Source: Candidatus Melainabacteria bacterium (lineage in GTDB: Bacteria; Cyanobacteriota; Vampirovibrionia; 2-02-FULL-35-15). From it: DNA of 42,728 nt. The stretch is from NCBI GenBank assembly GCA_016193285.1, contig JACPSL010000033.1, positions 1 through 42,728 of the forward strand, in the 5' to 3' direction. How positions within the stretch are numbered: position 1 is the first letter of the stretch; every line of letters begins with the position of its first letter. Shown piece after piece: positions 14,614 to 35,281 of the stretch. The translations under genes were made by a program, and so were the position numbers. The notes beneath the pieces are model-generated. The model saw only the letters and a list, made by a program, of their open reading frames with translations, searched no databases and was not told the DNA's origin.

Positions 14614-14892
14614 ATGAGAAGTAAGATTACAACAATTGAAGAAAAGTTGTATATAACAAGGTTACAACCAGATATAGAATCTCATATTAAGGTTAACCAT
14701 GACATTTGTTTAATTTGCAAAAATAAAGAATGTACACAATTTTGCCCGGCAAATGTTTTTGCTTGGTCAAGAATTGATGATAGGTTAATTATTAGCTATG
14801 AAAACTGTATAGAATGTGGTGCATGTAAGATTGGGTGTCCATATGAATCCATAAAGTATAATCATCCTAAAGCAGGATATGGGTTGGTTTAA
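14614..14892 (+). CDS. FixX-type ferredoxin-like protein
   Basis: A 92-aa protein with a C-terminal [4Fe-4S] motif ENCIECGACKIGCPYESIKYNHPKAGYGL (Cys-x2-Cys-x2-Cys-x3-Cys-Pro) and a partial N-terminal cluster CLICKNKECTQFCP. This arrangement and the closing tail are typical of FixX, the ferredoxin subunit or partner of FixC in electron-bifurcating or ETF-dependent quinone reduction. It lies six bases after the FixC-like gene and its last codons overlap the start of the UbiB-family gene, so the three are one transcription unit. Confidence 0.85.
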   Translation: MRSKITTIEEKLYITRLQPDIESHIKVNHDICLICKNKECTQFCPANVFAWSRIDDRLIISYENCIECGACKIGCPYESIKYNHPKAGYGLV

Positions 14893-16423
14893 AGTGTCTT
14901 TAAAAATCTTAAAAAGTATTTTTGTTATTTATCGTGAGGTTTTTTCAGAGTATGGACTTAGCGGGATTGGAAGATTAACTTCATTTTTAAAGTTTGCTCT
15001 ACAAATTAGCTTTTATATCTGGCTGGATCATAAAGATTTTAGAAACGATGGTTTTTTATTTTATATTTGTACAAAAATTGATCCCTTACTTTTAGTTTCT
15101 AAAGAAGAAAGAGATTCAAAGAGAGCAAAGTGGCTTTTAGGACAAATACTTATACATGGAACTACTTTCATAAAGCTAGGGCAGATTTTAGCAACAAGAG
15201 CTGATTTCATTCCACTAGTCTATATGAAAGAACTTGCAAAGTTACAAGATGAGGTACCACCATTTGATAATGATTTGGCATTTGACATTATTAGAGCCGA
15301 ATTAAAAAGGCCACTTACAAGTATTTTTTCTGAAATTGATTCTTACCCTCTTGCAAGTGCGAGTTTAGGACAGGTTTACAGAGGGACTCTTTTAGATACA
15401 AACAAAGAAGTAATTATCAAGGTTCAAAGACCAAACTTAAAAAATGAAATTGAAAAGGATGTTTTTGTATTAAAAGCTTGTGCTAAAGAAATTATGAAAT
15501 ATTTGTCTATTGCGAGGGGAAATGATTACGTAGGTTTGTTAGATGAGTTTTTAAGAGTTATCAATGAAGAGATTGATTATATACAAGAGGGGAAAAATTG
15601 TGATCACTTCAGGAAAAACTTTAAAGGATTCCATCAGATTTATGTACCAAGAGTTTACTGGCAATACACAACTAGAAGAGTTATTACCTTAGAGCATGTT
15701 CATGGTTGGAAAGTAAATGAAAAAGAAGAGATGGTGTCAGGTGGAATAAATTTAAAAGAAATTACAAGAGAAGGTTGTAATGTTTATTTAAAACAACTTT
15801 TAACAGATGGGTTTTTTCATGCAGATCCACATCCAGGGAATTTAAGAGTTATGAAAGACGGGAGACTAGCATTTTTTGATTTTGGTATGGTGGGACATGT
15901 TTCACGTGACACACAAATCAAACTTACAAATACAATTTTAAATTTAATAAACAGGAACTACAAAGAAGTAGTAAATAATTTTGTCTCATTAGGTTTATTA
16001 GAAAAAGATTCATGTGATCTAAATGAATTAGCAAGAGTATTACAGCCAGTCTACGATATACGTTTTGGTCATACGGGTGATATTAGTACAACATTTAAAC
16101 AAATAATAGAAGATCTTGCACATATTATTTATAAATATCCTTTTAGAATTCCTGTTGAACTTGCTTTAATTATTCGTGCCTTGCTTACCTTAGAAGGTTT
16201 AGGGCATACTTTAGATCCTGGATTTAATGTTATAAAAGCATTGATTCCATTTGTTCAAAAATATATTTTTGGAAAGGAAGGAGCTTGGCTTAGGGAACAT
16301 TTAGTAGGTCAAGTTACAGAAAACAATTTAATTTTTAATGGTGCAAAGGAATTACGGGCCTATAGCTCAGTTGGTAGAGCACTTGCATGGCATGCAAGGG
16401 GTCAGGAGTTCAAGTCTCCTTAG
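14879..16423 (+). CDS. ubiB: ABC1/UbiB-family atypical kinase, C-terminus read from tRNA sequence
   Basis: Atypical protein-kinase-like ATPase linked to quinone or isoprenoid-lipid metabolism. Seen: the KxGQ motif FIKLGQILATRADFIP, the Ala-rich loop variant PLASASLGQVYRG, VIIKVQRP with the ATP lysine, EIDYIQEGKN, FHADPHPGNLR and DFGMVGH. The start overlaps fixX by 14 bases, suggesting a quinone-linked operon. Residues 493-514 (RAYSSVGRALAWHARGQEFK, then SP) are encoded by the tRNA-Ala gene, and the stop TAG lies within the tRNA acceptor stem. The family's hydrophobic C-terminal tail is missing, so the protein is probably truncated but keeps the whole kinase core. Confidence 0.87.
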   Translation: MGWFKVSLKILKSIFVIYREVFSEYGLSGIGRLTSFLKFALQISFYIWLDHKDFRNDGFLFYICTKIDPLLLVSKEERDSKRAKWLLGQILIHGTTFIKLGQILATRADFIPLVYMKELAKLQDEVPPFDNDLAFDIIRAELKRPLTSIFSEIDSYPLASASLGQVYRGTLLDTNKEVIIKVQRPNLKNEIEKDVFVLKACAKEIMKYLSIARGNDYVGLLDEFLRVINEEIDYIQEGKNCDHFRKNFKGFHQIYVPRVYWQYTTRRVITLEHVHGWKVNEKEEMVSGGINLKEITREGCNVYLKQLLTDGFFHADPHPGNLRVMKDGRLAFFDFGMVGHVSRDTQIKLTNTILNLINRNYKEVVNNFVSLGLLEKDSCDLNELARVLQPVYDIRFGHTGDISTTFKQIIEDLAHIIYKYPFRIPVELALIIRALLTLEGLGHTLDPGFNVIKALIPFVQKYIFGKEGAWLREHLVGQVTENNLIFNGAKELRAYSSVGRALAWHARGQEFKSP

Positions 16424-16428
16424 GTCCA
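16356..16428 (+). tRNA. tRNA-Ala (anticodon GGC)
   Basis: A full cloverleaf: acceptor GGGCCTA pairs with TAGGTCC, D-arm GCTC-AGTTGGTA-GAGC, anticodon stem CTTGC/GCAAG around ATGGCAT with anticodon GGC, T-arm AGGAG-TTCAAGT-CTCCT, discriminator A. The G3-U70 wobble pair, the alanine identity element, is present. CCA is not encoded. The gene overlaps the 3' end of the UbiB reading frame by 68 bases on the same strand. Confidence 0.97.
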
Positions 16429-16813: not shown

Positions 16814-17500
16814 TTATCTGCGTTTTCTGGTTTGAAAATCGTCGTAAATCTTTTTAACTATATCACCAGCTACATCTTTTCCGCCTAGTCCAAATGCAAG
16901 TACACCAGTTGCAACAATGCCAGTAAAAAGAATTTCAACAAGAGGTCTTGAGATTTGAAGCTGGTTTAGGGCAGCTAAGATTGCAAAAGTAAATATTGCA
17001 ACTTTTGCAATGCCAGATAAATAACCAAGTTCATCTTTAAATGAAGTAGTAATAAGGTTTGCAACAAAGTTAGCTAAGAGTGAAGCTACAAGCAATATAA
17101 TTACTGCTACAAAAACATTTGGCAGATAAAGTAAAACTTCATTAAAAAAGTCAGTTACTTGGGTAAGATTTGCAATATCAGCAGCAGCAATAAAAACAAT
17201 AATTAAAACAAACCATTTTACTAGCTCACTAAAAAGCCTGGATGTATTTAATTTTATTCCAAGATTTTCAGAGACAGGATATAAAAGTGTTTTTTCAAGT
17301 GCTATATCTAATTTAAGTTTTTTAATCCCTGTACCAACCAGTCCACTTAAAAGCATTGCTACTAAAGAACCTAAAATTAAAATAATCAATGCTCCAAGAA
17401 GATTTGGCAGCACAAAAGAAATCTTTTGCAAAAGAGTTGTAAGAGCTGTTTGTAAAGCTGAAGTCCAGTCTAGTATCATGTGTTTTGTTCCTTCCATCAT
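16814..17500 (-). CDS. Mechanosensitive-channel-like membrane protein (TM_helix family)
   Basis: A 228-aa protein with about five hydrophobic helices arranged as repeats of the conserved TM_helix unit (LPNLLGALIILILGSLVAMLLSGLV, and LPNVFVAVIILLVASLLANFVANLI), ending in LVATGVLAFGLGGKDVAGDIVKKIYDDF after a pore-helix-like segment. The AFGLGGKDVA motif recalls MscS pore-lining and beta-entry sequences, but the soluble MscS vestibule is absent. It is probably a short stress or osmolyte channel, or a membrane scaffold. Two adjacent ATG codons follow GAGGGA and either may start translation. The BON-like gene lies 109 bases downstream. Confidence 0.7.
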   Translation of the reverse strand: MMEGTKHMILDWTSALQTALTTLLQKISFVLPNLLGALIILILGSLVAMLLSGLVGTGIKKLKLDIALEKTLLYPVSENLGIKLNTSRLFSELVKWFVLIIVFIAAADIANLTQVTDFFNEVLLYLPNVFVAVIILLVASLLANFVANLITTSFKDELGYLSGIAKVAIFTFAILAALNQLQISRPLVEILFTGIVATGVLAFGLGGKDVAGDIVKKIYDDFQTRKRR

Positions 17501-17591: not shown

Positions 17592-19391
17592 TTAAGGAGT
17601 GGGGAGTCTGATTTCTAATTTTATTCTGCCTTCAGAGTCAGGATTTATGCTTCCATCTCTACCAGTTCGAGTTCTGGTCACACGTCCTCTTGTAAGAATT
17701 TCAATGTCCTTATCAGTGTCAGCATGTGAAAAAATATTAACTCCTCTTATAGTCATAGAGTTACCACCTAGTTTAAGTGCTCTCATACCTGAAGGCTCGC
17801 CATTACGGGTCCTTTCAGGGGATACTATTTCAAGAACAATGCCAGCTTCTTCTAAGTATCCTATCATTTTTTGTTGCATAAATGGATGAAAATCCCTGCC
17901 ATGTTCTGTATAAGTTAGAATTCCACTTGCAATATTTAGCTCTATTTCTTTTGAATCTAGTTTTAACTGGGCAAGCTTCTTTCCTAAGTTAGCTAATTCA
18001 CCTTTTTTAGTTGCAATTTCTTTTTTTATTGCTCCTTCATCTTTAAGATCATTTATTTCTTTTTCAGCATCAGCTAGTTTTTTCTTAGCTTCTTTAAGCA
18101 ATTTTTCTGCTGTATTTTCTGCCTCCGATGCATCATTCTTACTTTTCTCATTTTTCTTATGTACTTTATCTGTAGCTGTCAAATCATTTTCTTTTTTTGT
18201 TAAGTCTACCCTTGCACTTACAAGATTAGCTTTAGCATCATTTAATTCTTGCTTTGAATTATTTAAATCAGCTAATTTCTTTTGAAGTTCTGGATCGGGT
18301 GCTGCAATGCCTCTAGCTGGATTACCATTAATTACATCTCTATATTCAATCTCTCTACTAGCTCTAGCTGTATTAAAAGCTGCTTGTTTTATAATTACTT
18401 CTTGTTCAGCTCTTCGTAACTTTTCTATTGCATTTATTTTTTGAGTTGCAAGAGTAGCTAATTCTCCTTTTAAGACATTATTAGTTGGATCATCCTTCAG
18501 TTCTTTTGCTTTGTCTCTAAATTTTCCTTCTATATCTGCTCGCTCTGACTTAGCATTATCTCTTTCAGTAGTTTTAGTTTCTAACTGGCCTTTGGCTGCT
18601 TGATACTTATTTACTGCTTGCTGGAGAGAATTTTGAACTAGAGCTGGAAGGGTACCACTATCTAACTTATCTTTTATAGCCTTATCTAAGGCTTCTGTGT
18701 ATGCTTCTACTTCAGCTTCTTTTTGAATTACAGTTAACTCTGCATCTTTAACTTTATCTTTTGCTTTGTTATGATCATTTGTTTTATTTGCTAACTCTTG
18801 TTCAGAAGTCTTTGTTTTTTTATCTAGTGCCTCAAATTTTTCTTTTTCCTCATCAAAAGTTTTCTGCCAAGCATCTACTTCTTGTTGTAATTTTGGTATT
18901 TCTTTTTCTTTCATGGGTACTAAAAAAGATCTTGTAGCAAGTCTTAGCCCAAGATTTGAAATCTCATCTTTTACTTTCTTAATTTTGTCTTCAGTTTCAA
19001 AAAATCCTTCCGGATTAATTTTTAGTGTAAAATAATTTAAGCGTGAAGAAGAAAGATCTACATATGCTCTTTCAACAACGTCAGCATCCCCTCTGTATCC
19101 ATAACTACTCCTTACTTGTATAATTGGTCGCCCATCTGATGTATGGCCTACTACAGTTCCTCCAGTAGGTGGTTTTACTTGTCTGCCTGTAATAAGAGTG
19201 CCAGACCTTAAAGGTGGAGCTGTGGCTGGAGCTCCATGATGAGAAGGTTCTGGTTGGGCTGCTACAAATTGATCTCCACTTAATGTAGGTTGACTTGAAT
19301 GATCTTTATATACCCTTGGTTGTGGCAGAGATTCTAAACGAGAAGGTGCATTAATAGGAGTATGAATGTGAAAAGTTGTTGTATATGACAT
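17592..19391 (-). CDS. Long coiled-coil protein of unknown function
   Basis: Not recognised. A 599-aa protein with three parts. Residues 1-115 are Pro/Gly/Ser/His-rich and disordered-looking (SQPTLSGDQFVAAQPEPSHH), ending in a short strand segment VGHTSDGRPIIQVRSSYGYRG. Residues about 130-480 are Lys/Glu/Ala/Asp-rich heptad helices, a long coiled coil broken by NPARGIAAPDPEL. The last 120 residues are a globular domain (YTEHGRDFHPFMQQKMIGYLEEAGIVLEIV ... GRIKLEIRLPTP). No signal peptide or membrane segment. AGGAAA precedes the ATG. It is the last of five minus-strand genes, and by analogy of build it could be a filament, tether or secreted structural protein, which is inference. Confidence 0.7.
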   Translation of the reverse strand: MSYTTTFHIHTPINAPSRLESLPQPRVYKDHSSQPTLSGDQFVAAQPEPSHHGAPATAPPLRSGTLITGRQVKPPTGGTVVGHTSDGRPIIQVRSSYGYRGDADVVERAYVDLSSSRLNYFTLKINPEGFFETEDKIKKVKDEISNLGLRLATRSFLVPMKEKEIPKLQQEVDAWQKTFDEEKEKFEALDKKTKTSEQELANKTNDHNKAKDKVKDAELTVIQKEAEVEAYTEALDKAIKDKLDSGTLPALVQNSLQQAVNKYQAAKGQLETKTTERDNAKSERADIEGKFRDKAKELKDDPTNNVLKGELATLATQKINAIEKLRRAEQEVIIKQAAFNTARASREIEYRDVINGNPARGIAAPDPELQKKLADLNNSKQELNDAKANLVSARVDLTKKENDLTATDKVHKKNEKSKNDASEAENTAEKLLKEAKKKLADAEKEINDLKDEGAIKKEIATKKGELANLGKKLAQLKLDSKEIELNIASGILTYTEHGRDFHPFMQQKMIGYLEEAGIVLEIVSPERTRNGEPSGMRALKLGGNSMTIRGVNIFSHADTDKDIEILTRGRVTRTRTGRDGSINPDSEGRIKLEIRLPTP

Positions 19392-19489
19392 TTTAAATTT
19401 CCTTTCCCTAGTGAATATAAAGTTTAAAGATAAGTAGATTTGATATGTATTAGCTTAAATTTTTTTAATGTAAACCTTTGTTTAAGAAT

Positions 19490-20275
19490 CTATCTAATAG
19501 GATCAAAATAATTTATTTGTACAACAGGCTTTGGATAAATTCTCAAATCATCTTCAATTCCTGATCTAGAGTAAATCTGAGTAAACCCTCTATTCATTCT
19601 TAAACCTTGATAAAAGCTACACTGTACACCATATCTTTCAAGCAGTGCTTCATTTAAATTTATAAAAGGATTCTTTTTACATTGCCCAGCACCATCCAGG
19701 TTTAGCTGTAAAGTAATAGGCTTTGGTTTTTTTCCTTGTGTTTCTTCATCCCAAAACGGAAAATCAATTACTAAAAATTCATTTGTCTTTCCTGCTAAGT
19801 CAATTGTTTCATGATTAATAAATCTCCCTCTGCCATTGAATCCTAACTTACGTAAACCAGCCATATCAAGAATTGAATTTGGATTCCTCCCTTGGTAATA
19901 TGCTCTGTATAAAGTATCATCATCTGAATCAACCGAACTCCACCTATTATTTCTTATCCAGCCATAGCCTTTAGGATTATAAAAAAGTTCTGCACCAACT
20001 TTTTCACCTCCTTCATAAAAAGCAATGGCAGTGAACACTACAGAGTCGCCATTAATATTTTGTGCACTAAAAATTGAACCAGGAGAACTTGAGTGAAAAG
20101 CTTCTACACTACTTTCTTTAAAAAATAATCTATCTTCTTCTTTGCCAATTTGAACATATCCAGAAAGACAATTAATTCTAGGTGGTGGCAAAGCATGCCC
20201 AGAAGTTTGTGAAGTAAATCGTCTAACTGGAAGTTGTGGATTATAACTCCTTGTTGGGGATATTTGCTCTGGCAT
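19490..20275 (-). CDS. Unknown protein of the 17.6-22.9 kb cluster
   Basis: Not recognised. A 261-aa protein with a Pro/Arg-rich N-terminus (MPEQISPTRSYNPQLPVRRF), then a mixed strand-rich region with many aromatic and Gly residues (EDRLFFKESSVEAFHS, AIAFYEGGEKVGAELFYNPKGYGWIRNNRW), and a C-terminal FITLQLNLDGAGQCKKNP-like stretch. No signal peptide or membrane helix. The start is supported by AGGAG five to nine bases upstream. The open N-terminal tail resembles that of its neighbours, as if all share an export or docking signal of similar character. That is only an impression from composition. Confidence 0.65.
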   Translation of the reverse strand: MPEQISPTRSYNPQLPVRRFTSQTSGHALPPPRINCLSGYVQIGKEEDRLFFKESSVEAFHSSSPGSIFSAQNINGDSVVFTAIAFYEGGEKVGAELFYNPKGYGWIRNNRWSSVDSDDDTLYRAYYQGRNPNSILDMAGLRKLGFNGRGRFINHETIDLAGKTNEFLVIDFPFWDEETQGKKPKPITLQLNLDGAGQCKKNPFINLNEALLERYGVQCSFYQGLRMNRGFTQIYSRSGIEDDLRIYPKPVVQINYFDPIR

Positions 20276-20286
20276 TCTTTTCTCCT

Positions 20287-20715
20287 TTAACCCCAGGCAA
20301 TGTTTCTAGGTCTTCGTGGGTTTGACATTCTTGGCATATCTATATCTTGTCCTTGTTCCATTTCAACTCTGGGTGTATAAGACTGTCTATATGCTATAGG
20401 TGGTCTACTAGCAAACCACTCATCTGAACCAATAACATTTTGCATAGGAATAGGTTGAATGTATAAACTACTTACAAAATTAGATTGATTAACCATTCTT
20501 TCATAGTGGTTTCTTGCCATGTTTTGAGCAATAGAGCTTTGAAAATCTGCAATATTCATCAGTCTTCCAAATTGATCATCTAATTGTTGTGAATAAAATC
20601 TGTGGTTATATGCAGCACCTCTACTCGTAAAAGTTCCACGACTTCTTCTATCAGCAAAGGAAGGTGGAAACGGTGGTATATTTCTATAATAATTTATTTC
20701 CCATGGGTTTGACAT
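20287..20715 (-). CDS. Arg/Asn/Tyr-rich unknown protein of the cluster
   Basis: Not recognised. With the ATG at 20715, preceded by AAGGAG, the product is 142 aa (MSNPWEINYYRNIPPFPPSF...). The frame extends upstream to 20751 but without a ribosome-binding site. Composition is unusual: rich in Arg, Asn, Tyr, Pro and Met with almost no Lys, which contrasts with the Lys-rich proteome around it. A central helix (QLDDQFGRLMNIADFQSSIAQNMARNHYERMVN) is flanked by disordered ends. It is basic, so it might bind a polyanion. It lies 11 bases from the following gene of the set, likely the same transcript. Confidence 0.6.
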   Translation of the reverse strand: MSNPWEINYYRNIPPFPPSFADRRSRGTFTSRGAAYNHRFYSQQLDDQFGRLMNIADFQSSIAQNMARNHYERMVNQSNFVSSLYIQPIPMQNVIGSDEWFASRPPIAYRQSYTPRVEMEQGQDIDMPRMSNPRRPRNIAWG

Positions 20716-20943
20716 TTTTAAATTCTCCTTACTTAAAAAACCTACAAGCATACAAGTAATTCTAGAAAAAGAAATTTACATAGTGACAAGATAAAATTTA
20801 TTTAATCTTAAGGATTTGATAACTTTAACGTGATCTTAAATCTTATGTGAGATGCTGTTTACTTATTATGTGCCAAACGAGAAATTTGGTAGGTTTGTTT
20901 TTGTAGTAAGTTAATCTGACTTTAGTTAAAAAGAAATAATCCT

Positions 20944-21774
20944 CTAATCTTGATTCTGTGGTTTGTATTGTATTTCCGGTAGTGTGTAAAGCTGATCAGT
21001 TTGTAAACGAGATGGTTTACTCTGCTGTTGTGTAATATGCTCCTTTATTAGTTTTGGAGATTGACTTTGAGTAGGAATTGTTATCGTTGCTTTAGGTATT
21101 GTATCTTCTTTTGCTTCAGGTGTCCACTCATGCCACATATGGTCTTTTATATAGTAAGCTTGTTTTATTAGCCTCGCTCCAGAAATATGACCATTTCCTT
21201 CCGGTTCAAAAGTAATGCCACCATCTCTTCTTGCAGTGTAAGTTCCTGTGTAACCTTTTCTTGTAAAAGTATCACCAGGTTTTATTTTTCCATCTTTAAG
21301 CCTTTGAGCAATTTCATCGTTAGCTGCTTCTAGGTCAAGTTCAGTTGCAGCCTGAGTTAGAGTCTTTGAAACATTCTCATCTGTTGTACCTTTTGGCAAT
21401 GATAAGCTTGGATCATAAGCTAGAATTCCTACCGGTACAAATCTTCCCCTACTAAAGTATCCTTGTGGTGCTAATCTTGGACCACCAAATTCTTTTGAGA
21501 AAACGGTACCCGAATTATATGAAAGTCTGTAATTATCTTTGTCTCCTGAAACAAAAAATACTCTTCCTGGTACACCATGGGGATTACTTGCATTAAGTTT
21601 AATGCCACGACCTGTTACTCCTTGAGAGATAAGCTGGTTAACTACTGCTAGTTGTGCCTGTTGTTTTAAAGTCTCCTGCAAGTATGAGATTTGCTCTGTA
21701 TATTCCATACTATGTGGATCAAACCACCTGCTTTGTTGCGGTCCCATTGGCCATTGTATAGAAAGCATAAACAT
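20944..21774 (-). CDS. Unknown protein of the cluster, coupled to the EF-hand gene
   Basis: Not recognised. A 276-aa protein whose ATG shares a base with the upstream stop (TAATG), so it is translationally coupled to the EF-hand gene. The N-terminus forms an amphipathic helix (EYTEQISYLQETLKQQAQLAVVNQLI); the centre is strand-rich with many Gly (GVPGRVFFVSGDKDNYRLSYNSGTVF, GDTFTRKGYTGTYTARRDGGITFEPEG), and the C-terminal 65 residues are Gln/Pro/Ser/Lys-rich and disordered. No signal peptide or membrane segment. Translation could also begin at Met3. Confidence 0.65.
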   Translation of the reverse strand: MFMLSIQWPMGPQQSRWFDPHSMEYTEQISYLQETLKQQAQLAVVNQLISQGVTGRGIKLNASNPHGVPGRVFFVSGDKDNYRLSYNSGTVFSKEFGGPRLAPQGYFSRGRFVPVGILAYDPSLSLPKGTTDENVSKTLTQAATELDLEAANDEIAQRLKDGKIKPGDTFTRKGYTGTYTARRDGGITFEPEGNGHISGARLIKQAYYIKDHMWHEWTPEAKEDTIPKATITIPTQSQSPKLIKEHITQQQSKPSRLQTDQLYTLPEIQYKPQNQD

Positions 21775-22913
21775 TAGTGCTGCCCACCAAATGCAGGTAA
21801 TTGACGACCAGGAATATTCCCTGCTCTAGGTGTTTCTCCTTCCCTTGCAAAATTAATCCTTAGCTTTTTTACATCAGGAGCTGTTTTATGTTCTATATAT
21901 CTGTACTGATAGTCATTACCATGTGCTATTTTCCTCCCTTCAGACTCTTGTGGATCATAAAGGAGTAACGCTGCACCGAAGTCATCGTCATCAAAATTAC
22001 CTAAAATTATCTTTCCACTAGCCAGCTTTATATAATCCTCGCCTGCTGTACCATTCTTTAGTAAATATTTAGCGAAGCTTATTCCAAAGCGGTCAATGTT
22101 ATTCTTGAAATTTGTTAATTGTTCATTGTTACTATCCGTATGCCAGTCTGTTGAAGTTCTAATTGCAAGTAACTGATGCATCATCATCTTTGCACTAAAT
22201 CCAAGCTCCACTCCTTTATTAATAGCCTTTTCATAGAACTTATTCATAAACTCTTTTTTAAGATTTCCATCTTGGATATTTTTATCAGCCCAGTGTTGTA
22301 CTGCATAGATTTCAAATGCACTGAGAAATTTTTGATTGTCATTTGTCCAGAGGTTATGAACAAGCTTATCAAGTGCTCCTTCATTTATTTTTCCATTATC
22401 AATCAACTTCTCACTAGAAGGCAAATGCCTGTTTATAAGATCCATAGTAGCTGAATTATTGAAATCAAAGGTTCTTCCTCTGTGTGCTTTTCTCCAAGCC
22501 GTCTGGGCATTTAAAATTGTTTTATGTTCAGGTTTTAAATTATTTTCAACAAATTTTATTGGCTCTTTTACAATTGTTGATTTTTTAATTTCATCATCAA
22601 TAACTTCTGCGGCTCTTCGTAAACCTTCATTAGAAGTAGTTTTCAAAAGTTCAAAAAGCTTATCCCTAAACTCTTTAATATCTTTCTTATCCTCTCCTAT
22701 TTCACTGATAAATAAATCTATTGCTCCTTTGCTTTCAGTCAAATTTAATTTACCATCACCATTCGTATCTAATGTTTTAAGGAGTTCTTTCTCAGCTTTT
22801 GTTCTATCTATATTATTTCCGTTTTCAATTACAGAGGCTTTGAGCTTGTTTAGTCTTTCTAAATTTTCAGCACTAATCGTTGGTAATGCTCTTGATATTG
22901 CTCCATCTGTCAT
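21774..22913 (-). CDS. EF-hand-containing unknown protein, first gene of the cluster
   Basis: A 379-aa protein with one clear canonical EF-hand calcium loop, DTNGDGKLNLTE at about residues 50-61, flanked by helices (KAEKELLKTL before, SKGAIDLFISEI after). The rest is mostly helical and not recognised. The C-terminal part contains NFDDDDFGAALLLYDPQ and a Gly-rich end. There is no signal peptide, which is unusual for a Ca2+-binding bacterial protein unless it is exported by a non-Sec route or senses cytosolic calcium. GGGGGG precedes the ATG. Its stop overlaps the next start (TAATG). It heads a likely five-gene unit running down to 17592. Confidence 0.7.
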   Translation of the reverse strand: MTDGAISRALPTISAENLERLNKLKASVIENGNNIDRTKAEKELLKTLDTNGDGKLNLTESKGAIDLFISEIGEDKKDIKEFRDKLFELLKTTSNEGLRRAAEVIDDEIKKSTIVKEPIKFVENNLKPEHKTILNAQTAWRKAHRGRTFDFNNSATMDLINRHLPSSEKLIDNGKINEGALDKLVHNLWTNDNQKFLSAFEIYAVQHWADKNIQDGNLKKEFMNKFYEKAINKGVELGFSAKMMMHQLLAIRTSTDWHTDSNNEQLTNFKNNIDRFGISFAKYLLKNGTAGEDYIKLASGKIILGNFDDDDFGAALLLYDPQESEGRKIAHGNDYQYRYIEHKTAPDVKKLRINFAREGETPRAGNIPGRQLPAFGGQH

Positions 22914-23073
22914 ATATTAAATTCCCCCCTAATTTATTTCCCACATATTAAATTCCTAACTCGGCAATGTTATCTTTTTATTAAAAGTGGTTAAACTTTT
23001 CTTACCCTTACTAAATATTTATTAAACAGATTTAATGTGATATCCACCATTTGTACTAGTAATAGGTTGATTT

Positions 23074-23475
23074 TCAGGATTTAAAGGAATATTCCTTTAT
23101 ATACAGCATGATTTCTTTTAGGTCTTTTATATTATTTGGCTTCCTAATAAATAAATCTGCTCCATTTTGATAACAATACTTCATGTCAGAGATGGAATCA
23201 GAACTTGTAAAAATTACAACAGGAACGTGAGATGTAATTGTTTTAGATTTTATTTTATTTAAAACTTCAAGACCACTCATTTTAGGGAGATTAATGTCAA
23301 TAAGAATAATATCTGGCAACTTGCTTTGAGATTCTACGATATTATTTAATAAGTCTAATGCAGCTTTGCCATTATTTGCAACTAATAAATTTGAATTAAT
23401 CTTTGAATCTTCCAGTGCAAGTTTAATTAGTACTATGTCATCGTTATTGTCTTCTACAAGTAATATCTTTCTCAT
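23074..23475 (-). CDS. Single-domain response regulator, Rcp/CheY-like
   Basis: A 133-aa stand-alone receiver. Acidic pair ED at residues 8-9 (LLVEDNNDD), phosphoacceptor Asp60 (IILIDINLPKMSG), Thr/Ser switch in VVIFTSS, and Lys in FIRKPNN. The longer alpha2-beta3 loop and LPKMSG are usual for the Rcp1-type regulators that follow phytochrome-like kinases. Its ATG overlaps the upstream kinase stop by four bases, so it is very probably the cognate partner. It has no output domain and must act by protein contact or phosphotransfer. Confidence 0.92.
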   Translation of the reverse strand: MRKILLVEDNNDDIVLIKLALEDSKINSNLLVANNGKAALDLLNNIVESQSKLPDIILIDINLPKMSGLEVLNKIKSKTITSHVPVVIFTSSDSISDMKYCYQNGADLFIRKPNNIKDLKEIMLYIKEYSFKS

Positions 23476-24791
23476 GTTGCTCTATTTAAGGTAAAGTAAA
23501 ACCTGCTTCCTTTATTTTCTTGTGATTCTAACCAGATTTCACAATTATATTTTTCTAAAATCTTTTTAACTATAGCAAGACCTGCTCCTGTCCCTTCATA
23601 TTCTTCCTGAGTATGTAATCTTTGAAACAACCCAAATATTTTTTTATGATATTCACTCTCTATTCCAATACCATTATCTTCAGTGCAAATACAAACTTTC
23701 TCTGGGTCAAAATTTAAGTCTTCTGCAAGAGATATTTTTACATGTGGCTCTTTTGATTTGTTAAATTTAATTCCGTTTGTAATTAGATTTTTAAATATTG
23801 AAGAAACTTTTTCCTTGTTTCCAATTACTGGTGGCAACCTGTCTACAACTAACACGTTAGCATTTTGATTTTTTATAAATGCAGTTAATTCAAACTGTAC
23901 TTCAGTAAGGAGCAGATTTAAATCTACTTTTTCATTTTCTTTGTTGCTTCTTGATGCCTGGGAAAGATTTGTTAGATCTTCTATTAGCCTTCTCATCTTT
24001 TGTGTTGCACAAACTATTCGCAAGAAATAATTTTCTTTTTCTTCATTAAGATTTTCTTTTAATTTATCCTGGAGAATGCTTACAAAACTTTCAATTGTTC
24101 TTAATGGTTCTCTTAAATCATGGGATGCAATATATACAAATGAATCAAGCTCTTTGTTTACTTGCCTTAAGATCTCGTTAGCATTAGTAAGTTCTCTTTC
24201 AGTTCTTCTTGAGAGTTCTAAAAGATGATTTCTTTCCATAGTATTTCTAATCATATTTGCTGTAGTTTTCATAAACGACATTTCTTCATTATCAAAGTTA
24301 TGTGGTTTTACATAATACTTGGCAATTGCTCCAACAGATTTATCATTAACAATAATTGGAACTGCTGCTGCTGAAATAATTTTATTTGGTTTTATGATTT
24401 CAGTAAAAAATTTTGAAAAGCTCATATTTACCTTTTCTAGATTTTTTATAACTACAATTCGTTTTTCAAGCATTGATCTTATAGAAGGCCAGTTGTCATC
24501 TACACCATTTAATCCTATGGTGAGAATTTTTTCTTTATTCCTTACTTCCTGATATTTATCAGGCAACCCATACGCAGCTTCAACATAGAGCTTGTTCTTT
24601 GTGTTTTTCAACAAGAAAAATAATCCATAGTCTGCTTCTGTTAGTTCACAAAATGCCTTTAATACTCCTTTTGCAACAGCTGAAAGATCGAGTGTAAAGA
24701 AATTTGAACAAGCTTCAGATATGTCTTCAATAGCTTGTAATCGCTTTAAAGTCTTTTCAAGGTTTGTTTCTTTTGTAATTAAAGAAGACAC
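23472..24791 (-). CDS. GAF-domain sensor histidine kinase
   Basis: A 439-aa cytosolic kinase with no membrane segment. Residues about 20-185 form a GAF-like sensor (LTEADYGLFFLLKN, AAAVPIIVNDKSVGAIAKY). The H-box is ASHDLREPLRTIESF with His224, of the phytochrome-associated HisKA type. The ATPase has N-box LITNGIKFNKS, G1 CTEDNGIGI, F-box FGLFQRLH and G2 GTGAGLAIVKKI. No chromophore-binding Cys is obvious in GAF, so light sensing cannot be assumed; a small ligand or redox cue is equally possible. The start appears to be GTG with no clear ribosome-binding site. It is coupled to the receiver gene downstream. Confidence 0.92.
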   Translation of the reverse strand: MSSLITKETNLEKTLKRLQAIEDISEACSNFFTLDLSAVAKGVLKAFCELTEADYGLFFLLKNTKNKLYVEAAYGLPDKYQEVRNKEKILTIGLNGVDDNWPSIRSMLEKRIVVIKNLEKVNMSFSKFFTEIIKPNKIISAAAVPIIVNDKSVGAIAKYYVKPHNFDNEEMSFMKTTANMIRNTMERNHLLELSRRTERELTNANEILRQVNKELDSFVYIASHDLREPLRTIESFVSILQDKLKENLNEEKENYFLRIVCATQKMRRLIEDLTNLSQASRSNKENEKVDLNLLLTEVQFELTAFIKNQNANVLVVDRLPPVIGNKEKVSSIFKNLITNGIKFNKSKEPHVKISLAEDLNFDPEKVCICTEDNGIGIESEYHKKIFGLFQRLHTQEEYEGTGAGLAIVKKILEKYNCEIWLESQENKGSRFYFTLNRAT

Positions 24792-32872: not shown

Positions 32873-35281
32873 GTGAATAAGAAAATGAAAAAATTATATT
32901 TAAGTTTTCTTATCCTGATTATGTTCTTAATGAGTCAGGGTAATTCACTTGCATTATATATTCATGCAGCAAAAAGCAAAAGTCTAAAAGCACAAGAAAA
33001 CTTATCTAGTATATTGCTTCCAACATTTAGATATGACAGAAATAATATAGAACTAAATCAAAAGCTGGCTATAGATTTAATCTTAGAACCAAATTCAAAA
33101 ACCGTGAAAGTTGAAGTAATAGGTGCAGAAAGTATTGGTTTAGGCATTGATAGTAACACACTTATAGAGAAGGGGTTAAAAATATTTAAACCAAGTGAGC
33201 TTAGGCCTTCAAAAGAAAAAAAACAGAATTTCCGCATCAATTCATTTGTTATTTTTAACTTAAAAAAAATACAGAACCAAAACTTACTGATACAAGCAAT
33301 TGATTTTAAAGTGCTTAAAGTGTATGTTAAAGGCATACTACCAGGTGCTTATACTTTAAGAGCCACTGTAGATGATGACAGAACTACTACTACTACAATC
33401 TTTACTAAGCCTGATTTTAGATTAGATGCTGTAACTCCCTCTGTTGTTAATCCAGGAGCTACGACAGTTCTTACACTTATTGGTAAGGGACTTGACTCAC
33501 TAACAGAGATATTTATAGAAAGTAATAAAGTAGATATAGAAATAAAAGATATCTTAAGTTTTGGTGATGATATTTTAAAAGCAAATATAGTTACAAAAGA
33601 TAATGCTTCACCAGGATTTAGAGATGTAACTATTTCAAGTCCTCTTCTAGGGAGATCTGTAACTTTAGTAAATGGTTTACTAATTAGTTCAACAAATCTA
33701 AGTACAGATAGTTTAGGAATAGACATTGCTCCTGGGATGGATGGCATAGATGGTATGGATGGAATGGATGGATTAGCTGGCATGGATGGCATGAGTATTT
33801 GTGAAAATCCAAACGATAATCTAATGATCTTTACAAATAATCTTCCACCAGGAAGGCAAGCTACTTCATTTTTTGATCCTGTTTTATGTAATCTTACTTT
33901 TGGGATTCCAGTAGGTTTTAATGGAGTAACAGGAAATACTGGTGCAATAGGTGTAACGGGTATAACAGGAGCTACAGGTGCTACAGGTGCTACAGGTGCT
34001 ACAGGCGCTACTGGTGCAACAGGTGCTACAGGAGCTACAGGCGCTACTGGTGCAACAGGTGCTACAGGAGCTACAGGCGCTACTGGTGCAAGTGGCACAA
34101 ATGGAATTAACTGCTGGGACTTAAATGGAAATGGAATCAACAATTCAAATGAAGACATAAATATGGATGGCTCATTTAATACTCTTGATTGTCAAGGGCC
34201 AGAGCTTAGAACAATAGAAGAAGTAATTGCAAACTGGTCTACTTTATCAGATGAGCAAGATTTTACAACTAGCTCAAGCAATATGACAAGGATGATAAAA
34301 ATACCTTTCTTTATACACGACGGTGTAGTGTATGGTGGATTTTGGATAGATAAATATGAAGCAGCAAGAGCTGATGCAACAGCAACAGCTGAAGGCACAT
34401 CCACTGTTCCAATAAGTAAAAGAAATGTTGTTCCATGGACAAGTATAAATCTTGCAACAGCAAAACTAAATGCAAGTGCTACAGGAAGACAAATATCCGG
34501 ACTTGGAAGTTGTAAATTAATTGGGATGAGGGAATGGTATTCACTTTATTTACTTGGAAGATATGCTAAAGAAAATGGTATTTTTGGTGCTACAGCAAAT
34601 GGTGGTTGGAATGAGAGAGGAAATACTAGGACTGGAAAAGACGGAAGAAATAATGCTGGTTTTATTTGTACTGATGATCCTGTAGAAAATGGTGGTGCTA
34701 GCGGTAGATGTTTAACAGGAACTGGATTTAAAAGTTGGGGCCATTTGCTAGATTCTACTGCAACAACAAATCCCAATGGTTCAGCCATAGGAGCTTCAGC
34801 AGACAGTGCTACAAATTCAACAAACGCATTTGATGGTGACTTGCAAGTTTATGACTTAGTGGGAAATGTTAGAGAGTGGATTGATTACACTATAACAAAA
34901 AGTGCAAGTGGATTTATTGTAGATTCAGGATATCAAGGTGCAGGAATTCCACTTTCTTTTACAACCAACAATAAATTTTTTAGTTTTGTTGATATTGCAG
35001 GGAATACAAATAATTCAACAAGCTCAGATGAAATTGAATTTAGAGGGTTAGGACTTCCACGCACAGGTGCTAATGGTAATCAAAGCGATCTAAATGAAGG
35101 AGTAAATGACGGGAAGTTTCTTACAAACTCAACAAATGCACAATATGGAACTGTTCGTGGAGGTTCATGGACAACAGGAGTTGATTCTAGATCACCTTTG
35201 TATTTAAACATTAGTACTGCACCAACTACAACAGAATCTGAAAGAGGTTTTCGAGTTATTTGTGATTTTTCAAACCCATAA
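32873..35281 (+). CDS. Secreted collagen-like protein with TIG and SUMF/FGE-type domains
   Basis: An 802-aa surface or secreted protein. The order is: signal peptide ([22 protein letters not shown]); a domain of about 130 residues; an IPT/TIG-like domain near 180-275 ([23 protein letters not shown]); a first Gly-Met-Asp triplet run ([13 protein letters not shown]) at 287-308; a Gly-x-Thr collagen run at 351-409, mostly GAT; a Ca2+-binding-like [18 protein letters not shown] at about 414-431; and a C-terminal SUMF1/formylglycine-enzyme-like fold ([46 protein letters not shown]). The last is usually a binding or structural fold in such proteins. GTG at 32873 or ATG at 32885 may start it. It is probably a trimeric fibre with globular tips. 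Confidence 0.85.
33986..34093 (+). repeat. Three 36-bp direct repeats encoding collagen triplets
   Basis: Units at 33986, 34022 and 34058 are nearly identical (GGTGCTACAGGAGCTACAGG, then CGCTACTGGTGCAACA) and encode four GAT triplets each. Flanking GGTGCTACA repeats extend the array to the left. Near-identity at the DNA level means the collagen stalk can lengthen or shorten by slippage or recombination in frame. Confidence 0.9.

What the first reader, a model, noticed from the sequence alone, without database searches (positions are those of the whole stretch)
17592..22913. Five unrecognised genes in a row: EF-hand, strand-rich, Arg/Tyr-rich and giant coiled-coil proteins
None has a signal peptide or membrane helix, and none matches a family that I know. 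They lie on one strand, two coupled by TAATG, mostly with good ribosome-binding sites. Several have disordered Pro/Gln/Arg-rich ends and strand-rich Gly/Tyr segments; one has a clean Ca2+ loop (DTNGDGKLNLTE), one a coiled coil of some 350 residues with a globular C-terminus. This mix suits a structural assembly: a cytoskeletal filament, an intracellular compartment, or secreted effectors/appendage parts exported by a non-Sec system. A GAF-kinase/receiver pair follows directly upstream on the same strand and may control them. It is the best candidate for an undescribed system.
Basis: inference. Interest (0 to 1): 0.65.

Follow-up and report, generated by a model that had tools for sequence, protein, structure and literature searches.

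The report
Fast-changing modular protein locus in Caenarcanales
A fixed spot in the genomes of an uncultured, non-photosynthetic branch of the Cyanobacteria holds rapidly changing, mix-and-match proteins of unknown family that share a stress-type promoter and are probably exported to act on the cell surface or on neighbouring organisms.

Summary
The five genes are real and match no family in Pfam, NCBIfam, PHROGs or PADLOC; models of A and B match no PDB fold. They are not a conserved five-gene system. Only gene A's domain (EF-hand N-terminus plus helical core) and gene B's beta domain recur: A in 11/11 genomes of its Caenarcanales family and, beyond one marginal EF-hand-only hit, in none of 371 others of the class; B's domain in 9/11 and 0/183. 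D is found only here; C and E showed no relatives.

The genes fill a fixed slot between a GAF-kinase/receiver pair and a MscS-like gene. Its content turns over: within one genus flanking proteins are 66-92% identical, slot proteins 19-49%, and slot and kinase trees conflict. Modules are reshuffled (EF-hand, A, G and W domains, Pro-rich, collagen-like, caspase-like).

The proteins lack signal peptides and are cysteine-poor. All 11 genomes keep the type III export gate FlhA but show no flagellin match.

Best reading: a variable, SigB/SigF-type-controlled repertoire of non-Sec-exported surface or effector proteins. Export is unproven.

The parts
21774..22913 (-). Gene A (379 aa): N-terminal EF-hand stretch plus A domain; founding member here of a family found in all 11 genomes of the taxonomic family
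   Evidence: ORF; EF-hand below cut-off; family; model, core residues about 130-325
20944..21774 (-). Gene B (276 aa): contains one G domain (about residues 144-220); translationally coupled to A (TAATG)
20287..20751 (-). Gene C (154 aa as listed; better start at the second ATG, residue 13): Arg/Asn/Met-rich, probably disordered; no relative found
19490..20275 (-). Gene D (261 aa): strand-rich, marginal likeness to the W domain; no relative in the 11 family genomes
17592..19391 (-). Gene E (599 aa): Pro-rich N-terminus, long coiled coil, globular C-terminus; single copy, no relative found
23001..23027 (-). SigB/SigF-type promoter-like element GTTTAA-N14-GGGTAAG, 88 bases or more before the start codon of A
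   Evidence: consensus from PMC9847131 and PMC2758279
23074..23475 (-). Receiver-only response regulator at one border of the slot
23472..24791 (-). GAF histidine kinase at one border of the slot
16814..17500 (-). MscS-like membrane protein (conserved TM helix only) at the other border of the slot

Best explanation
The block is the resident version of a hypervariable cassette at a fixed chromosomal slot, between the GAF-kinase/receiver and MscS-like genes, conserved through this Caenarcanales family. Its genes encode modular proteins built from a shared, family-specific set of parts: an EF-hand plus A-domain 'head', then interchangeable parts (G domains, W domains, Pro-rich or collagen-like linkers, a coiled coil, a caspase-like protease). 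Transcription, at least of A, starts from a SigB/SigF-type promoter that family genes at other places share, so the family behaves as a regulon. The proteins most likely leave the cell by a route that needs no Sec signal and act outside, as surface or effector proteins against prey, hosts or competitors, which drives their fast turnover. The retained flagellar-type III export gate in genomes without a flagellin match is the leading candidate route; a TolC-dependent type I system is the alternative. Shown: locus, family, restriction to one lineage, module sharing, turnover, shared promoter motif. Inferred: use of a SigB/SigF-type sigma factor, export, export route, function outside. The EF-hand may act as a calcium-triggered folding switch outside the cell (inference).
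For: A family 11/11 in the taxonomic family and essentially absent outside it; G domain 9/11 and 0/183; fixed slot with changing content; same-genus identity 19-49% against 66-92% for flanks; A tree and kinase tree conflict with strong support; domain fusions; shared promoter element, leave-one-out 7/34 family genes above 18 bits versus 0/347 others; no signal peptide or membrane helix and cysteine 0.24% versus 1.26%; FlhA 11/11, flagellin 0/11, VirB4 0/11, TolC-type proteins in all.
Against: No export signal or machinery was linked to these proteins; FlhA/FliI are not near the slot. Other flagellar and type III genes could not be searched, so a flagellum with divergent filament is possible. 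Low cysteine is partly due to low-complexity tails. C, D and E have no relatives, so their place in the family rests on position only. Two A genes next to the receiver (L014, L007:13715) lack a clear copy of the promoter element.
Confidence: 0.5

Rival explanations
1. An intracellular structural assembly (filament, scaffold or compartment) whose subunits stay in the cytoplasm, as the first reader also proposed.
For: No export signals; coiled coil in E; disordered Pro-rich linkers; calcium-type loop.
Against: Same-genus A proteins are 19-49% identical and the slot can hold one to five different genes or be empty, unlike a machine with fixed subunits; cysteine depletion; caspase-like and collagen-like fusions.
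Confidence: 0.15
2. Surface or matrix proteins (adhesins, biofilm or sheath) exported by a TolC-dependent type I system with a C-terminal signal, no effector role.
For: TolC-type proteins are numerous in all 11 genomes; no N-terminal signal, calcium-type loops, collagen-like and Pro-rich repeats; SigF controls surface pili in Synechocystis (PMC2758279).
Against: No RTX repeat match in Pfam; no ABC exporter or adaptor gene near the slot.
Confidence: 0.25
3. Diversity driven by phage or competitor pressure: a polymorphic toxin or defence locus.
For: Fixed slot with fast turnover and exchangeable C-terminal parts; caspase-like domain in one protein.
Against: No PADLOC match above noise for A-D; no recognised toxin domain; no small immunity-like gene paired with each protein.
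Confidence: 0.06
4. No system at all: unrelated orphan genes gathered by chance in an insertion-prone place.
For: C, D and E have no relatives found; D is unique to this genome.
Against: A and G domains recur in the same slot, are fused in single proteins (L016:4330-6336, L118:8174-10048), are confined to one lineage, and share a promoter element.
Confidence: 0.04

Closest known systems
Polymorphic toxin and effector loci (conserved head, variable C-terminal modules)
   Same: Conserved N-terminal part, exchangeable C-terminal modules, fixed locus with fast turnover.
   Different: No known trafficking domain, toxin domain or immunity gene recognised; the modules belong to no described family.
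XopAW family (NF041410), EF-hand type III effectors
   Same: An EF-hand in a protein without Sec signal; gene A's best NCBIfam match.
   Different: 18.5 bits against a cut-off of 120, and only over the EF-hand; not a member.
SigB regulon of Bacillus subtilis / SigF-type (group 3) promoters of Cyanobacteria
   Same: Promoter pattern GTTTAA-N14-GGGTAA; SigF controls surface structures in Synechocystis (PMC9847131, PMC2758279).
   Different: No sigma factor of that type was searched for in these genomes; -32 TAGGC of SigF is not present.
Flagellar-type III export apparatus retained without a flagellum
   Same: FlhA with a FliI-type ATPase in the family, no flagellin match; incomplete flagella sets are reported in the class (PMC4040986).
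   Different: Link to the slot proteins is conjecture; remaining components unknown.

Membership tests
EF-hand proteins (gene A) | Canonical 12-residue loop with acidic or polar ligands at 1, 3, 5, 12 and Gly at 6 | tested here: met
   DTNGDGKLNLTE in A
EF-hand proteins (gene A) | Pfam EF-hand match over the curated cut-off | tested here: not met
   EF-hand_7 21.3 bits against 30
XopAW type III effector family | NCBIfam NF041410 over cut-off | tested here: not met
   18.5 bits against 120, EF-hand part only
Type III secretion substrates | Export dependent on the type III apparatus through an N-terminal signal | not testable with these tools
   FlhA 11/11 and no flagellin match 11/11 are compatible only
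Sec or Tat substrates | N-terminal signal peptide | tested here: not met
   No hydrophobic N-terminal stretch in A-E (hydropathy scan, not a trained predictor)
Type I (RTX) secreted proteins | Calcium-binding nonapeptide repeats | tested here: not met
   No such Pfam match in A-E or in ten relatives
SigB/SigF-type promoter | GTTTAA, spacer of 13-17, GGGTAT-like -10 | tested here: met
   GTTTAA-N14-GGGTAA at 23027-23002; leave-one-out enrichment; function untested
Caspase (Peptidase_C14) in a relative, L007:13715-16264 | Pfam PF00656 over cut-off, His-Gly and Cys-Ser-Gly motifs | tested here: inconclusive
   21.0 bits against 21.4; SGHGS and DACYSG present
Known anti-phage defence systems | Match to a PADLOC-DB model | tested here: not met
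   None for A-D; only weak coiled-coil matches for E

The most novel reading that the evidence does not exclude
Caenarcanales have kept a flagellar-type III export apparatus without flagellin and turned it into a secretion system for a lineage-specific, SigB/SigF-controlled repertoire of modular effectors whose sorting head is the EF-hand/A domain, used in predation or symbiosis by non-photosynthetic Cyanobacteria.
Probability: 0.2. Interest if true: 0.85.

Novelty: new variant of a known kind. Interest (0 to 1): 0.58.

Why it matters
It defines two domain families (A and G) that no library scanned here names and that are confined, as far as searched, to one family of non-photosynthetic Cyanobacteria, plus a shared promoter that makes them a testable regulon. 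If the proteins are exported, they would point to how these uncultured groundwater bacteria interact with other cells, and would offer a reason why a type III gate is kept in genomes that appear to lack flagellin.

Tried and rejected
Family libraries gave nothing above cut-off for the five genes. Plasmid and phage records gave no match to a relative carrying A and G domains. Foldseek of the A and B models against PDB, and of A against viral structures, gave no match with E <= 0.001. A link between E's C-terminus and the C-terminal domain of L015/L007 proteins, seen by eye, was not significant (14-15 of 500 shuffles as good or better). Gene D as a W-domain protein stayed marginal. A type IV secretion route was rejected on VirB4 0/11. 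The single hit outside the family (G075) covers only the EF-hand part of the profile. Sigma-70 and terminator scans did not exceed shuffles. Rfam shows only the tRNA. Searches of contig collections with the A1 and A4 alignments could not be run because no stretch was conserved enough. Reading about 190 kb more around FlhA in five genomes showed FlhA with FliI but, by eye, no further type III genes.

Full report
Observation. The five ORFs exist at the stated places on the minus strand. Start sites: A has GGGGGG, D has AAAGGAG and E has AGGGAAAGG before the ATG; B is coupled to A by TAATG; C is better started at residue 13 after AGGAG. A carries one canonical EF loop. E has a coiled coil and a globular-looking end. 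None has a hydrophobic N-terminus or membrane helix. Pfam, NCBIfam, PHROGs and PADLOC give no match above a cut-off.

Where it comes from. The window is a contig of a 1.81 Mb assembly. Its closest relatives in the named collection are Candidatus Melainabacteria / Caenarcanales MAGs, several of them from groundwater by their names: RIFCSPLOWO2_02_FULL_35_15, RIFCSPHIGHO2_02_FULL_34_12, nzgw190-193, SSGW_16, NC_groundwater_50, SW_12. Eleven genomes in eight genera form its family.

Conservation. A profile of the A family hits 11 of 11 family genomes. Of 371 other genomes of the class, 370 have no match and one (G075) has a marginal match (E 3.7e-4) over the EF-hand part only. The domain in gene B ('G domain', consensus GxFxRxGxxGxYxxQxDGSIFYxGG) is in 9 of 11 and in none of 183 others. 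Gene D is in no other family genome even at E <= 1. E has no paralogue in its genome, and C and E have no BLAST relative among the slot proteins read.

The slot. In the relatives the same place, between the GAF-kinase/receiver pair and a MscS-like gene, holds different genes of the same kind. G002 has five and G003 three. G005 has four, G006 one and G010 three. G009 has one. G004 and G007 have an A gene next to the receiver, with contigs broken in PNPGVN or PADAKPP repeats. G001 has an A-like fragment that runs into what looks like a transposase reading frame at the contig end, and a second A gene elsewhere (the transposase call is by eye). G008 has an empty slot and its A gene elsewhere. So the place is conserved and its content is not.

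Turnover. Within one genus (G006, G009, G010) identities are 84-88% for PheS, 89-92% for the MscS-like protein, 77-82% for the kinase and 66% for the receiver (one pair), but 23%, 19% and 49% for the A proteins. The A tree puts G006 with G008 and G004 (100/100), while the kinase tree puts it with G009 and G010 (100/99). This is gene replacement or birth and death, not slow drift alone.

Modularity. A heads are fused to G domains (three copies in L016:4330-6336, two in L118:8174-10048), W domains (L007, L016:2175-4310), collagen-like GPTGPTG (L009:8911-11226) and a caspase-like end (L007:13715-16264; Peptidase_C14 21.0 bits against a cut-off of 21.4). G genes also occur away from the slot, for example four in a row on G005:C58, and one next to a caspase-like gene on G008:C3. 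AlphaFold models give a confident core for A (residues about 130-325) and for the G domain of B, and neither matches a solved structure.

Promoter. Aligning the gaps between receiver and slot showed a shared element. In the window it is GTTTAA-N14-GGGTAAG at 23027-23001. Close copies stand upstream of A-family genes in six other genomes: in L116, L019, L009 and L012 before the first slot gene, in L016 and L007 inside the slot, and in L118 at a dispersed locus. With each site left out of its own matrix, 7 of 34 family genes score above 18 bits against 0 of 347 other genes. One of the seven is an independent G gene on another contig (L145). The eight training sites were picked from A-family upstream regions, so the leave-one-out result shows that the sites resemble each other beyond background; it is not a blind discovery. 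The pattern fits the SigB consensus GTTTAA-N15(+/-2)-GGGTAT (PMC9847131) and the GGTAA -12 box of Synechocystis SigF, a SigB-related factor that controls surface pili (PMC2758279). The kinase's receiver has no DNA-binding part, and no receiver was found after the kinase in G006, so direct transcriptional control by that pair is unlikely.

Export. 38 family proteins have 0.24% cysteine against 1.26% in 22 control proteins of the window, which is usual for proteins that work outside the cell (general knowledge), though low-complexity tails contribute. FlhA is present once in each genome (split in two draft assemblies), next to a FliI-type ATPase in the six loci read; it scores higher with FlhA than with SctV but below both cut-offs. 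Flagellin_N has no match in 11/11, VirB4 none in 11/11, and TolC-type proteins are plentiful. Soo et al. 2014 reported flagella genes common to Caenarcaniphilales and Gastranaerophilales and incomplete flagella sets in several Gastranaerophilales (PMC4040986); the predator Vampirovibrio of the same class is proposed to use a type IV system (PMC4451040), which these genomes lack. A type III gate without flagellin is therefore a plausible but unproven route.

Verdict. The finding is real and undescribed as far as I could search, but it is a variable repertoire rather than a five-part machine. Most likely it is an exported surface or effector repertoire under SigB/SigF-type control. Type I exported surface proteins and a cytoplasmic scaffold are the main rivals.

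Noticed in passing
G006:C13 around 159998-160453: A TolC-type (OEP) match lies in an open frame reported as 24,216 aa, which would be a giant gene.
   Followed up: no
G000:C25 (L154:12994-16471) and the same place in relatives: FlhA with a FliI-type ATPase in a conserved housekeeping neighbourhood in genomes with no flagellin match; FlhA scores between flagellar and non-flagellar models, below both cut-offs.
   Followed up: partly
L007:13715-16264 and L146:2-1543: Two related caspase-like C-terminal domains (GHG ... CYSG/CQSG) attached to Pro-rich proteins of the family or beside a G-domain gene.
   Followed up: partly
L143:1-4414 (G005:C58): Four tandem G-domain paralogues that begin MFILQ..., away from the main slot and without the promoter element.
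   Followed up: partly
L019:8950-9550 (G001:C4): The slot's A-like gene in G001 is cut short by what looks like the start of a transposase frame at the contig end.
   Followed up: no
L009:14068-16029 and L019:6566-8524: In G003 and G001 the slot's GAF kinase has an extra N-terminal region of about 200 residues that the others lack, possibly a V4R-like sensor domain (by eye).
   Followed up: no
window 32873-35281: A predicted exported protein with a long Gly-Ala-Thr collagen-like tract and a C-terminal region resembling formylglycine-generating-enzyme domains (by eye); the tract also gives a long antisense open frame (33349-34158).
   Followed up: no
window 16356-16428: A tRNA-Ala(GGC) gene overlaps the 3' end of the ABC1-kinase ORF 14879-16423.
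   Followed up: no
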